Source of the DNA: Zygnema cylindricum
Lineage: Eukaryota; Streptophyta; Zygnematophyceae; Zygnematales; Zygnemataceae
Direction: 5' to 3'
Assembly: GCA_037447655.1 (NCBI GenBank)
Contig: JBBHKE010003002.1
Coordinates: 1-64,000, forward strand
Length of the DNA stretch: 64,000 nt
Shown: positions 25,241-36,944 of the stretch, in pieces
Numbering within the stretch: position 1 is the first letter of the stretch
How the letters are laid out: each line of letters begins with the position of its first letter
The notes under the pieces: generated by a model
What the model was told of the DNA's origin: nothing
Database searches by the model: none
The model's input: only the letters and a program-made list of their open reading frames with translations
Program-made: the position numbers and the translations under genes

Positions 25241-28200
25241 ATGGCTTTTTTTCTTCCAGGAAAAGCATTCGACAGTCATTCCTGGGCAGTTCAACAGCAA
25301 ATATATAAGTGTAGTTGGAGGATAACACCGACCACAGTTTCTTGTCAAACACAAAAACAAAATCAAATCAGTTCTTATGCCGCTTCTAATAGTTTATGGC
25401 TCAACTTATCTTGCACAAATACACCATGGCTAAGAAAGAAGACAGTCCCTGTCATTTCTTTCAACCATGATTCAAAACCTAAAACTTACTATAATGACCG
25501 ATTCCCTCTCCCTCTGCCTCTCCCTCGTACTGCTCCCTTTTCTAAAACGAACCTAAACCCTAAATCCCTGAATGTGATTGCTCTTGCTTCACGAGATAAC
25601 TCTCCAGAATCTCTTCCCGATGAAACTATTGCTGGTGAAAATACTCAATCCCTAAAACAAAATCGAAAACAAAAACGAAAACAAATTCGAAAACAAGCCT
25701 TAGAAGAAATCCTAGAAGGAACCCTGGAAGAAACCAGAGACGTGGCAGTAAGCCAAGTTGTTGTACCATTTTACAGACCCGTTCCGTTTATAAACGTTGC
25801 TGAAAAGCTTGGTAATTTGAGCACGTGGCAGAGATATAGTTTGGGAGTCCTATGGCTTACGTCACTGGCAGCAGTGGCATGGCTGATGAACCTTAATGCT
25901 TCTGGTCTAGTGGATGACACGGAGCCCTTGTTTGTGGAAGCTGCTCGACAAATGTAAGTTTTTGAATTCTTTGTTTTTTTTGTTTGTTTGTTTTCGTTTG
26001 TTTTGTTTTCGTTTGTTTTGTTTTGGTTTTGTTGTGTTCAAGAGCTGTCAAGAATTAATTGGTAAGGTCAGGAGAATGTGCATTGTTGAACTCTACTTTC
26101 TTTTGGTTTTTTTTTTTTTTTTTTTGGTTGTTTTTAGCCGTCAAGAATTATTTCGAGCATAGATAGGACACTGCCCATTAGTGTAAATCAATTATAAATG
26201 TAAATGGGGAATTAGAATGCAAAATTTTAATTTAGCGTAGGGGGACGTGGCGGATTGTAGTCCACTCCCTTAAATAACGTTATTAACACTATTTTTTTAT
26301 TTTTGGTGAAAAAAAGCAGCGACAGAAGTAGTGTTATTAAAACTAAGTTGGGAAAAGAAAAGGGGAATTTTTTACATGAATGTAATAATGCCCTTGTGTC
26401 TGGTACACTCTATGTCCTTAAGGTAATTGGGCTGTCAAAAGTGCAATTGATACAGTTTATTTACGATCGATGTCACTAGACCTTATATAGTTGTTAGAGT
26501 AAATAACATTAATTTAAGAGCGTTTTTTTTGAGCCAATTACAGCGATTGGTGAAAGGTGTAATTTTTTTTACTATAGGTGGTCCCTTCCTTAGATTCGGT
26601 TCACCGCACTTGGCTATTAGAGTTACTGAATTATTAACGTTAACACTTTATAATATTTAACTATACTAACGCCTATTTTGTAACATTGCCCATTATGCCA
26701 ATCACCTAATTAGTATTCTTAACATCACTCTATAATTTTGGGTAAAAAAAACATTCACGAGAATTAGACTGACTTAACTCTAATAACAATGGGCAGTGGA
26801 GCAATATCCTTCGTCGTCTGAAATGACATTTATGGAAAAGCCCACTGGCAATTGTTTGAAAAAACCTTAATGTGGCAGTTGATTTTTTGTGCGTAGTGTT
26901 GATTTCTATTTAGTGCAAAATTTGTCTTTGATTGCGACAATGATTTTTTTTTTTTTTTTTTTATCATTTTCAGGCTCGTGACGGGAGATTTTGTGACACC
27001 CCAATTCAACGCTATGCCACGTTTTGATAAACCACCTCTCATTTATTATCTTATGGCACTAAGTGTATGTTCCCTCCTTCCCTCCCTCCCTCCCTCCCTC
27101 CCTCCCTCNNNNNNNNNNTAAACTTTCGACAATTTTAACCTACTGACACTCTATTCAGATTCGTCATAATAGGAATTACCGTACTTTAATATTCTAAATT
27201 CATATTCGAACCGCATTCTTTTACTATAAGAAAACCACTTATTGGAGGCCATTCTCCTCTAAGCTTTTTAGTCTGCTGAATGGTTAAATGGTTACCGCTT
27301 GAAAAACAATCAATTTTAAAGCATATAGGTTTATCTCTTCTCATGTTCATCTGATATTTCATGCATTTAGTTTTCTTTCTCTCTGTCTGATGAAAATTCT
27401 CACTTTGCCCTCTCACCTTCTCTCTCCTCTCTCCTCACCCCTCTCTCTTTCCATTGCTGGTCATTTTCTTACGCCAAGCTTATACTTAAATCTTATAATT
27501 TCATGCCATTAAGGATAATACTGCTTAGACTTATCTCACAGTCATCCAATTTTAACAGCTTTCAAATATTCATGTAAATGTACTTGCGTTTTCCGTCCAA
27601 ATGCATATTCCTGCTTAAGCTTATCTCACAGCCATCACTATCGTAACTATTTCCAATTACTCATGTAAATTTTTTTGTTCGCTTTCTGTTTTTTCCTTCT
27701 AGATGCGTATTCTCGAGTGTCGTGTCTGAATAATACTGCTAGAGTTATCTCACAGTCACCCCAATCATAACTAAGATCAGATATCCATGTTTAATTTTCG
27801 TTTGTTTTTCGTTTTTTCCTTCCAGATGCGTATTTTCGGATGTCACGTCTGGGCTGCCCGTCTGCCCTCGGCCCTTTGTGCCTTTTTTCTAGCTGCAGCA
27901 ATATTTGCTACCGTAGCAAAATTTTCAACTCTCTTACCTCCTTCTCCCAATAGTTTGGTTCCAGAAAAGAATGACTCAAATATACGAAATGGCCCAAATA
28001 TTGAAAATGACTCACGTATAGGAGATGATTCAAATATAGGCTTATTCTGGACAGCTGCATTTGCAGCTTCTGCAGCTTTCTGCCTCAATTTTGTGGTAAG
28101 TTTTATCCTTTTTGTCCTCTCCTGTGTTGGGTATTCCCTCCTCTCTCCGCCTCTCCCTCCACCTTTCTCTTTCTCCCTCCCTTGTTGCCTCTCTTTTTTC

Positions 28201-35700: not shown

Positions 35701-36944
35701 CTTTTGAATCAACAATTCACTTTACCAGAGTAATTTTAAATCATAAATGCTGTGATTTTTAGACAAGTAAATGGTAACACAAAGCTATAGTTCGACTACA
35801 AAACTGGTCTCTTTTGTTTTACTTTTTTTTTTTTTTTTTCTTTTTTTTTGGGCAAAAACCCTGTGGATTATTTTTAGACAATTACATGGTAATATAAGCT
35901 GTAGTTTGATTCAAAACTGGTCCCTTTCTTCTTCTTTTTCTTTTTTATTTTGTTATTATTGTTTCGTTTTTTTCGCAGAAACCCTGTGGCATTTGTGGAG
36001 TCTGTGAGTCGGGCGGTGCAAATTTTGCAAGAAGCAAGTTCACGGTGAGGACAAGTGGCAAATTCCCATTGGTTATTTGAGGGGTTTTAGGGTTCTTTTA
36101 GGCTTATTTTGGTTTTTTAGGGTTTTTTATATAATGTTTACTCAGCTTTATTAAGGTCATAGGGTTATTGCACTATATCGACGTTTTAACCTTGTTTTGA
36201 TGGTAAATCGTACGATTCGTACAGTTTTTTGATTAACCATACATACATGCATACGGTTTTCCGTAAAACTGTACGATTCACCCTCGACTTGAGGGTAAGT
36301 TTCTCTCGTATAATTACCCTACATAAATCCTTCTAGAAACATTCAATAAACACCCGACAATGTTTCACAGCCATTTCACAAATAGTTGAAAACATTTCTC
36401 GGTCATTCAATAGACCTTTGACTATCGTTTGACAAATATTTACATGACTTTTTGTTTGTTTATGACAAACATGTAGACAAAGCATTCGTAAGACCCCATT
36501 TGACTACCATTTTACAGACATTTCCCAGGAATTAAGATAAAAACTAATGATAAAAAGGAGAAAATGAAAAGGAAAGGATTAAGAATATATTGGGCAATAT
36601 AACCATGGTTTTGATAGAAATCAAATGCATTCGATAGTCATTTGACCAACATTTGATAAATACTTACCCGATTTTTTCATATAGAAAAACATATAGAAAA
36701 AACATTTAGAAAAACCATTTGACTACCTTTTACAGTCGTTTCACGACCATTTTGAAAAACATTTTTCCCAGACATTCAAAAAAAATCGACAAATGTTTAA
36801 AAAAACATTTTTTTTTTGTTTCTTTGCAGAATCCCGTCGGCATTGATTATAACGGAGACAGTTTTTGTGGAGAAGTTGGGAGAAGTTCAAGTTTTGGCTT
36901 CACATCACGGTTACTCCTTACTTCGGAAAATTTTGGGATCGTAA
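25241..36944 (+). CDS. ArnT-like GT-C glycosyltransferase, plant, intron-rich
   Basis: Exons by eye: 25241-25953, 26974-27064, 27826-28095, 29188-29376, about 31051-31155, 31654-31893, 32367-32534, 33342-33467, 34522-34716, 35088-35149, 35979-36044, 36830-36944. About 780-800 residues. One short exon (about 20-30 residues) is probably missing between 29376 and 31051. Residues 1-130 are Ser/Thr/Asn-rich with few acids, a possible plastid transit peptide. Then come a first membrane segment (about 195-215), the GT-C acidic loop DDTEPLFVEAARQM (Asp225/226, Glu228), TGDFVTPQFNAMPRFDKPPL (Asp256-Lys257), RLPSAL, LSDMLL (Asp369), LAKGPVG, FFGYHNVERYVQGVNHHGG, and LPSYYLPLAVPVA. This set is typical of ArnT-type lipid-linked sugar transferases, with the cyanobacterial C-terminal soluble tail (DKVLQEPLRKIAQLA). 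Substrate is unknown. The start is ATG 25241, since the codon at 25220 is TTG. Confidence 0.85.
26169..26798. mobile_element. MITE-like insertion in intron 1
   Basis: Inverted ends CACTGCCCATT and AATGGGCAGTG, with an internal TTATTAGAG block like family 1. Flanks are GA rather than TA. It makes up most of the about 1-kb intron 1 of the glycosyltransferase gene. Confidence 0.5.
27109..27118. other. Assembly gap (10 N) after a TCCC repeat
   Basis: Ten N follow a (CCCT)n tract in intron 2, just after the exon 2 donor. The true length of the gap is unknown. Confidence 0.99.
27521..27860 (+). repeat. Tandem copies of the intron 2 3' splice site
   Basis: Three units each begin CTGCTTA(A/G)-like DNA plus TTATCTCACAG and end with a T-rich tract plus ATGCGTATT- or ATGCATATT-type sequence: 27521-27610, 27611-27735, 27736-27860. 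Only the third contains the real acceptor (exon 3 from 27826). The second has an intact TAG acceptor at 27700-27702, followed by ATGCGTATTCTCGAGTG and an in-frame TGA. In the first, AG has become AA. Confidence 0.8.
28110..28870 (+). repeat. Polypyrimidine minisatellite in intron 3
   Basis: A nearly pure C/T tract of about 760 bp, with degenerate repeats such as CTCCTCTCCCTCAACCTTTC about every 120-130 bp. The long Ser/Pro/Leu frames here are artefacts of composition. Confidence 0.9.
28933..29190 (+). repeat. Tandem copies of the intron 3 3' splice site
   Basis: Three 111-112-bp units contain TTTTGTC(C/T)C, an AG, and the start of exon 4. The real junction is at 29187/29188 (GTTTTAGTGTGGAGCAGTAC). 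Decoys lie at 28964/28965 (GTATTAATGTGGAGTAGTAC) and 29076/29077 (GTATTAGTGTGAAATAGTAC). In the phase that the real exon uses, the first decoy meets TAA after 17 codons and the second meets TGA at codon 4. Confidence 0.85.
30549..30638. repeat. (TA)n microsatellite in intron 4
   Basis: About 90 bp of TA dinucleotides with two TG/GA interruptions. A shorter TA run (30910-30934) lies on the other side of the GC-rich islet. Confidence 0.97.
30639..30909. other. GC-rich islet inside a TA tract, possible organellar insert
   Basis: A sharply bounded segment of about 270 bp, much richer in G+C than its surroundings (for example GCGAAGCACTTCGGCGCGC and CCGGCTAAACGCCGG palindromes). (TA)n lies on both sides. 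Its clustered short GC palindromes recall organellar intergenic DNA. I recognise no gene. Confidence 0.4.
32695..32815. repeat. Poly-T with C7 interruptions in intron 7
   Basis: Runs of T interrupted by two C7 blocks. It is prone to assembly error. Confidence 0.97.
35761..35990 (+). repeat. Tandem copies of the intron 10 3' splice site
   Basis: Two units of about 115 bp (35761-35875, 35876-35990), each with AGACAA..ATGGTAA, a T tract and AAACCCTGTGG. The second provides the real acceptor CGCAG and exon 11. In the first, the corresponding bases are GGCAAAAACCCTGTGGA, where CAG has become CAA. Confidence 0.75.

What the first reader, a model, noticed from the sequence alone, without database searches (positions are those of the whole stretch)
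27521..35990. Several introns of one gene carry tandem copies of their own 3' splice site and exon start
In introns 2, 3 and 10 of the ArnT-like gene, the last about 100 bp of the intron plus the first 10-30 bp of the next exon occur two or three times head to tail. The real acceptor is always the last copy. The decoys are spoiled in different ways: AG to AA (27600, 35854 area), or AG kept but an in-frame stop a few to 17 codons later (27703, 28965, 29077). The duplicated unit always spans the acceptor, in unrelated introns, which is not what random minisatellite growth predicts. It could be a gene-wide mutational process, or a source of alternative, stop-containing transcripts.
Basis: seen in the sequence. 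Interest (0 to 1): 0.75.

Follow-up and report, generated by a model that had tools for sequence, protein, structure and literature searches.

The report
Exon edges copied into neighbouring introns
In this green alga, short stretches of DNA covering the border between an exon and an intron have been copied head to tail, so introns carry worn-out copies of their own splice sites; it looks like ordinary tandem duplication left to decay, and it shows how introns can lengthen from their edges.

Summary
With the gene model corrected against an 82%-identical relative (13 exons, 12 introns), four introns of the ArnT-like gene (2, 3, 5, 11: the finding's 2, 3 and 10 plus one it missed) hold 2-3 head-to-tail copies of the intron end plus 11-26 bp of exon. 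No donor of this gene is spanned (0 of 12). It is neither gene- nor acceptor-specific: 19 regions (190 kb) around DEAD-box genes of the same genome gave 6 acceptor-spanning and 5 mirror-image donor-spanning arrays. Decoys look neutrally decayed: 11 of 16 keep AG; exon and intron parts are 81% and 82% identical. Edge-spanning arrays exceed random placement about twofold (11 of 22 against 4.8-6.7), on an incomplete exon list. The excess lies in diverged arrays: 1 of 10 at 80% identity or more spans an edge, 14 of 18 below. Exon constraint keeps old edge arrays detectable longer in simulation. Best reading: ordinary small tandem duplication, tolerated because the copy joined to the full exon still splices. 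The process is known (a potato case). No RNA test was possible.

The parts
25241..36944 (+). ArnT-like glycosyltransferase gene: 13 exons 25241-25953, 26974-27064, 27826-28095, 29188-29376, 29762-29817, 31035-31155, 31654-31893, 32367-32534, 33342-33467, 34522-34716, 35088-35149, 35979-36044, 36830-36944; 803 aa; 12 GT-AG introns
   Evidence: 1235 bits to P0001; 82% identity over the searched part, first model; Pfam PF13231 PMT_2, E 1.9e-6, on the earlier 794-aa model
27515..27604 (+). Intron 2 copy 1, decoy: AG changed to AA at 27599-27600, about 10 bp of exon-like sequence
27605..27729 (+). Intron 2 copy 2, decoy: AG kept (27702), 26 bp exon-like, in-frame stop after 9 codons; acceptor score 9.5 against 12.4 for the real one
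27730..27851 (+). Intron 2 copy 3 with the real acceptor 27825|27826 and 26 bp of exon 3
28898..28985 (+). Intron 3 copy 1, decoy: CACAG kept (28964), stop after 17 codons, acceptor score 7.2 (real 6.8)
28986..29097 (+). Intron 3 copy 2, decoy: GGAG kept (29076), stop after 3 codons, acceptor score 2.4
29098..29207 (+). Intron 3 copy 3 with the real acceptor 29187|29188 and 20 bp of exon 4
30218..30414 (+). Intron 5: a further upstream copy (30218-30270 matches 30362-30414, 83%), without the acceptor part
30442..30541 (+). Intron 5 decoy copy: AG kept before 30519, 23 bp exon-like; acceptor score -6.1 (real 2.0)
30954..31057 (+). Intron 5 last copy with the real acceptor 31034|31035 and 23 bp of exon 6
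35755..35869 (+). Intron 11 decoy copy: AG changed to AA near 35855, 11-14 bp exon-like
35870..35993 (+). Intron 11 last copy with the real acceptor 35978|35979 and 11-14 bp of exon 12

Best explanation
These are remains of ordinary small tandem genomic duplications (spacing mostly about 60-250 bp) that happened to cover an exon-intron border. After such a duplication the copy joined to the whole exon keeps splicing (the last copy at an acceptor, the first at a donor); the other copy, which holds only 11-70 bp of exon, becomes part of the intron and decays neutrally. Some arrays grew to three or four copies. The effect is intron lengthening from the edge, with a trail of dead or half-dead decoy splice sites. 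Shown: head-to-tail copies, position across real junctions in 6 of 20 regions (the ArnT gene and 19 DEAD-box regions), mirror symmetry at donors, decay of decoys, single-place origin for two arrays. Inferred: that decoys are not used, and that the duplications arise by fill-in and end joining of staggered breaks or by replication slippage.
For: Copies abut: introns 2, 3 and 11 are contiguous head to tail, and 8 of 19 alignment pairs with 80% identity or more in the regions and the window abut within 4 bp. Independent genes show the same anatomy: acceptors in L035 at 8742, L039 at 7021 and 9710, L049 at 6388 and 7903, L041 at 469; donors in L035 at 8021, L038 at 3684, L039 at 7248, L041 at 2001 and 2848 (reverse-complemented coordinates where the gene is on the minus strand). 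Decoys decay: by my count, 11 of 16 acceptor decoys keep AG, 2 of 6 donor decoys keep GT (a third L041 copy and the first intron 5 copy were not scorable). Exon parts are 495/609 and intron parts 767/933 identical over 16 alignments, so decoy exon pieces are not specially preserved (unaligned intron is left out there, which flatters the intron figure). Intron 2 and 3 arrays each match only their own place in 353 Mb. In the DEAD regions 11 of 22 arrays span no called sense-strand edge.
Against: Edge-spanning arrays exceed random placement: DEAD set 11 of 22 against 4.8-6.7 expected (P 0.002-0.04 by weighting and exon list); 9 of the 16 arrays not seen before I chose regions, against 3.9-5.0 (P 0.004-0.03). 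By side, in all 28 arrays acceptors 10 against 3.3 (P 0.0008) and donors 5 against 3.4 (P 0.24). The detection explanation is not complete: edge arrays are much more diverged than the others (14 of 15 against 4 of 13 below 80% identity, Fisher P 0.001), a sharper split than my decay simulation gives (detected arrays below 80%: 176 of 439 intronic, 223 of 565 acceptor, 208 of 574 donor). Some decoys score as high as or above the real site (L049 decoys 18.2 and 18.2 against 16.3; L039 decoy 10.4 against 8.0; intron 3 copy 1 7.2 against 6.8), so use is not excluded.
Confidence: 0.78

Rival explanations
1. A mutational process tied to splice junctions or transcription duplicates DNA preferentially at exon edges, perhaps at acceptors above all.
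For: About twofold excess of edge-spanning arrays over random placement, also in arrays not seen before regions were chosen (9 of 16 against 3.9-5.0); 4 of 6 in the ArnT gene. Acceptor probes 11 of 114 (two of them, L033 and L035 at 9281, later dropped) and donor probes 2 of 114, against 128 and 172 of 3772 intron positions.
Against: The excess is absent among young arrays: 1 of 10 at 80% identity or more spans an edge, where roughly a quarter would be expected. Simulated edge arrays stay detectable 1.6 times better at 18% and 5.6-6.8 times better at 24% per-copy change with many indels, 1.1-1.5 times in a milder simulation. The exon list is incomplete, so the expected numbers are too low. By junctions confirmed by eye the DEAD set has 6 acceptors and 5 donors.
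Confidence: 0.12
2. The decoys are functional: kept as alternative or poison splice sites that regulate the gene.
For: Several decoys keep AG and score like real acceptors; use would give early stops after 3-17 codons in introns 2 and 3.
Against: 5 of 16 acceptor decoys and 4 of 6 donor decoys have lost the dinucleotide; exon-like parts no better conserved than intron parts; the relative P0001 carries only the sequence expected from the last acceptor at the four ArnT junctions.
Confidence: 0.06
3. The copies are insertions of an introner-like or other mobile element carrying a 3' splice site.
For: Similar anatomy in several introns.
Against: Each array copies its own intron and exon edge; intron 2 and 3 arrays match nothing else in the genome at E 0.001. 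Introns 5 and 11 were not tested (tool busy).
Confidence: 0.02
4. Assembly artefact (false tandem copies).
For: The assembly seems to hold near-duplicate contigs (L006/L007, L008/L009).
Against: Copies in edge-spanning arrays differ by 14-32%, far beyond read error, and the same form occurs in several contigs.
Confidence: 0.02

Closest known systems
Tandem genomic duplication across an intron-exon boundary in a potato RdRp gene (Ma et al. 2016, PMC4974935; abstract and Results section read)
   Same: A head-to-tail duplication covering the 3' end of an intron and the start of the next exon; branch site, pyrimidine tract and acceptor copied along.
   Different: There the upstream acceptor stayed in use and a new intron was gained. 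Here the upstream copies seem absorbed into the intron, which lengthens; it happens in several introns, also at donors, and with up to four copies.
[quoted passage not shown] Hellsten et al. 2011); seen only as cited in PMC3443670 (passages) and PMC4974935
   Same: Small duplications inside genes that copy splice signals.
   Different: As cited, they concern gained introns; in the ArnT gene the coding sequence seems unchanged.
Small tandem duplications from repair of staggered breaks (PMC8355091, passages read; the plant work it cites was not read)
   Same: Small tandem duplications at breaks with overhangs.
   Different: Experimental breaks in mouse and human cells; the cause here is not shown, and many units here are longer than the 50-bp overhangs mentioned there.
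NAGNAG tandem acceptors (recalled) and recursive splice sites (recalled; PMC6110457 seen in a search listing only)
   Same: More than one acceptor near an exon; intron 3 decoys read AG|GT.
   Different: Spacing here is about 100 bp, not 3 bp; the AG|GT form is confined to some decoys.

Membership tests
Tandem genomic duplication spanning a splice junction | Two or more head-to-tail copies of one local unit | tested here: met
Tandem genomic duplication spanning a splice junction | Unit covers intron end and exon start (or exon end and intron start) of a real junction | tested here: met
   4 junctions in the ArnT gene (checked against P0001), 11 in DEAD-box regions (exons judged by reading translations)
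Tandem genomic duplication spanning a splice junction | Unit is local, not dispersed in the genome | tested here: met
   Introns 2 and 3 only; introns 5 and 11 and the DEAD arrays not tested
[quoted passage not shown]
   ArnT gene only: the 803-aa protein read from the last copies matches P0001, which has no extra piece at these junctions; decoys of introns 2 and 3 run into stops after 3-17 codons. No RNA from this species seen; not tested in the DEAD genes.
Introner elements | Many dispersed related copies | tested here: not met
   Single genomic match for intron 2 and 3 arrays; others not tested
Functional alternative 3' splice sites | Use in RNA | not testable with these tools
   No RNA reads available
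Functional alternative 3' splice sites | Decoys preserved beyond neutral expectation | tested here: not met
   11 of 16 keep AG; exon part 81%, intron part 82% identity; no cross-species test

The most novel reading that the evidence does not exclude
In this alga exon-intron edges are themselves prone to tandem duplication (through transcription- or splicing-linked breakage, or through retention once formed), so introns grow from their ends and genes build up strong competing splice sites: a directional route to longer introns and new splice variants.
Probability: 0.14. Interest if true: 0.65.

Novelty: new member of a known kind. Interest (0 to 1): 0.42.

Why it matters
It gives fifteen junctions, in six of twenty sampled regions of one genome, where a duplication across a splice junction can be read; the papers seen here describe this step from gained introns. 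In the ArnT gene it ended not in a gained intron but in longer introns with decoy splice sites; the DEAD genes look the same but were not tested for gained introns. That makes the competition between once-identical acceptors or donors, and the origin of alternative splice sites, open to a direct test in one species. It also warns against reading an excess of old arrays at exon edges as mutational targeting, since exon constraint keeps such arrays recognisable longer.

Tried and rejected
A false exon (35514-35558) and a missing exon 5 (29762-29817) in my first gene model were corrected with P0001. The L033 array first counted as acceptor-spanning ends 10 bp before the likely true acceptor and was dropped; it is still among the 11 of 114 acceptor probes, as is L035 at 9281 (purine-rich, not a confirmed exon). 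L039 at 7456 (a decoy called as exon), window 346-470 and L050 were not counted as spanning. L041 at 469 was counted by eye; the scan did not score it. Only sense-strand exons were used: an exon called on the other strand in L032 (3759-4040; L016) touches two arrays that I counted as not spanning; other minus-strand calls were ignored too. Low-complexity repeats (dinucleotide entropy under 3.2 bits, masked by DUST, or spacing outside 40-600 bp) were dropped before all array counts, among them several in the ArnT gene.

Clustering by gene is not significant once the number of junctions is allowed for (P 0.06-0.09). The exon caller is incomplete: of the 11 internal ArnT exons it found 8 exactly before retraining and 4 exactly after. 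Rfam (gathering threshold) and bacterial-code tRNA scans of the window gave nothing. Ten literature searches (two of them returned no paper) listed the potato case but no survey of intron lengthening by edge duplication; that covers only this open-licence library and these terms. The organism was not identified; relatives point to a streptophyte alga.

Sampling caveat: the 10-kb regions were picked from DEAD-box hits after I had looked at the 3-kb loci (16 of 19 regions contain a locus already seen; L048-L050 do not), so 6 of the 22 arrays (2 of them spanning) were known beforehand; one search repeats the test without them. My notebook entry calls the first ten regions unbiased; that was too strong.
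Full report
What is there. The window is the first 64 kb of a 276-kb contig in a 352.8-Mb assembly. The finding lies in a 13-exon gene (25241-36944, + strand) for an ArnT-like glycosyltransferase of 803 residues. A close relative, P0001, is 82% identical over the searched part; the next nine hits are named as moss and liverwort proteins or bear codes that I recall as streptophyte algae. P0001 also served to correct the gene model: it revealed a 56-nt exon at 29762-29817, moved the start of the next exon to 31035, and removed a false exon I had set at 35514-35558.

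In introns 2, 3 and 11 the last 70-110 bp or so of the intron plus 11-26 bp of exon occur two or three times head to tail. A fourth intron, number 5, does the same (30442-30541 against 30954-31057), with a further copy upstream. With the corrected model, 4 of 12 acceptor probes and 0 of 12 donor probes found a significant junction-spanning copy in the intron (first model). The specific claims about AG, AA and stops at 27600, 27702, 28964, 29076 and 35855 are right.

It is not special to this gene or to acceptors. Thirty loci with DEAD-box exons were fetched from the same genome (51 matches were listed there), then nineteen stretches of up to 10 kb around such matches, 189.7 kb in all. Exons were called with a small codon and splice-site model trained on the ArnT gene and on DEAD exons; the candidate edge-spanning arrays were then read by eye as translations. 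Eleven junctions were confirmed. Acceptors: L035 at 8742, L039 at 7021 (four copies) and 9710, L049 at 6388 and 7903, L041 at 469. Donors, in mirror image with the first copy real: L035 at 8021, L038 at 3684, L039 at 7248, L041 at 2001 and 2848. Recognition of these exons as DEAD-box sequence rests on the family search and on recalled motifs.

The decoys behave like neutral relics. Of 16 acceptor decoys, 11 keep AG; of 6 donor decoys, 2 keep GT (counted by hand). Over 16 alignments exon parts are 495/609 identical and intron parts 767/933. Why the real acceptor is always last, and the real donor always first, follows from selection: only that copy is joined to the whole exon.

Is the edge special? 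Against random placement of units, not wholly in exons and not swallowing one, 11 of 22 arrays in the DEAD set span an edge where 4.8-6.7 are expected, depending on detection weight and exon list (P 0.002-0.04). Without the six arrays already seen when I chose the regions, it is 9 of 16 against 3.9-5.0 (P 0.004-0.03). In the ArnT gene it is 4 of 6 against 1.2-1.7 (P 0.02-0.05), but that gene was picked for the trait. In an earlier shift test on all 28 arrays, acceptors were 10 against 3.3 (P 0.0008) and donors 5 against 3.4 (P 0.24) (its acceptor count includes the false L039 7456 and misses L041 469). In a position-by-position probe test, 11 of 114 acceptors and 2 of 114 donors had a copy across the junction, against 128 and 172 of 3772 intron positions; that count includes the later-dropped L033 and L035 9281 cases and misses four junctions confirmed by eye (L038 3684, L041 469, 2001 and 2848). 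The exon list is incomplete (4 of 11 internal ArnT exons called exactly after retraining), so the expected numbers are too low. There is an excess of about twofold at most.

The excess sits in diverged arrays. Of 28 arrays, 10 have best identity of 80% or more and 1 of these spans an edge; 18 are below 80% and 14 span one (Fisher P 0.001; DEAD set alone P 0.008). If edges were hot spots, the young class should show it. In a decay simulation with many indels, arrays across an edge stayed detectable better than intronic ones: 0.67 against 0.41 at 18% per-copy change, and 0.23-0.27 against 0.04 at 24%. A milder simulation, which also asked that the alignment cross the junction, gave 0.57-0.63 against 0.41 at 20%. 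Constraint on the exon in the real copy therefore can explain much of the excess. The observed age split is sharper than simulated and stays partly unexplained; slower homogenisation of arrays with one constrained end is a possibility (inference).

How it most likely works. Small tandem duplications are common in this genome: 22 arrays passed the filters in 190 kb, and 8 of 19 better-preserved pairs abut within 4 bp (window included). Such duplications can arise where staggered breaks are filled in and joined (PMC8355091, passages read) or by slippage; which one acts here is not shown. When one covers a splice junction the gene survives, perhaps because the decoy carries only 11-70 bp of exon (median 32) while the real site keeps the whole exon. 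The intron gains the length of the unit. The known parallel is a potato gene in which a duplication across an intron-exon boundary gave a new intron (PMC4974935, abstract and Results read). Here the same event seems to have given longer introns instead. Intron 2 and 3 arrays each match one place in the genome, so these are not a dispersed element; introns 5 and 11 could not be tested because the search machine was busy.

What stays open. No RNA was available. Some decoys score as high as or higher than the real acceptor, so low-level use, and an occasional step towards a new exon or intron, is possible.

Noticed in passing
window 30639-30909: A GC-rich stretch sits between two AT microsatellites in intron 5 and pushes the copies of that array apart; it looks like a separate small insert. 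The search for further copies did not complete.
   Followed up: partly
window 28100-28860: Almost pure pyrimidine stretch in intron 3, with its own 125-bp imperfect repeats and strong strand skew.
   Followed up: no
window 38122-39603: A 68-bp array (4 copies, 91%) followed by a purine-rich array with 133-292-bp periods, just downstream of the gene.
   Followed up: no
window 11476-12879 (+) and 59324-60472 (-): Pieces of a hAT transposase (dimerisation domain) and of copia-type gag and pol sequence; the first has stop codons between its pieces (the gag match is below Pfam's cut-off).
   Followed up: partly
window 45054-46931 (-): A 625-aa open frame with plant-type CCCH zinc fingers (AtC3H23-like), in line with a streptophyte genome.
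   Followed up: no
L006/L007, L008/L009, L012/L013, L024/L027: Near-identical stretches on different contigs, suggesting uncollapsed haplotypes or recent duplicates in the assembly; useful for dating arrays.
   Followed up: no
L039 (C2484:5001-15000): One exon (7021-7248, reverse-complemented coordinates) has duplicated copies of both its acceptor edge and its donor edge.
   Followed up: partly
all 28 arrays: Edge-spanning arrays are far more diverged than the other arrays (14 of 15 against 4 of 13 below 80% identity); detectability explains part of this, not clearly all.
   Followed up: partly
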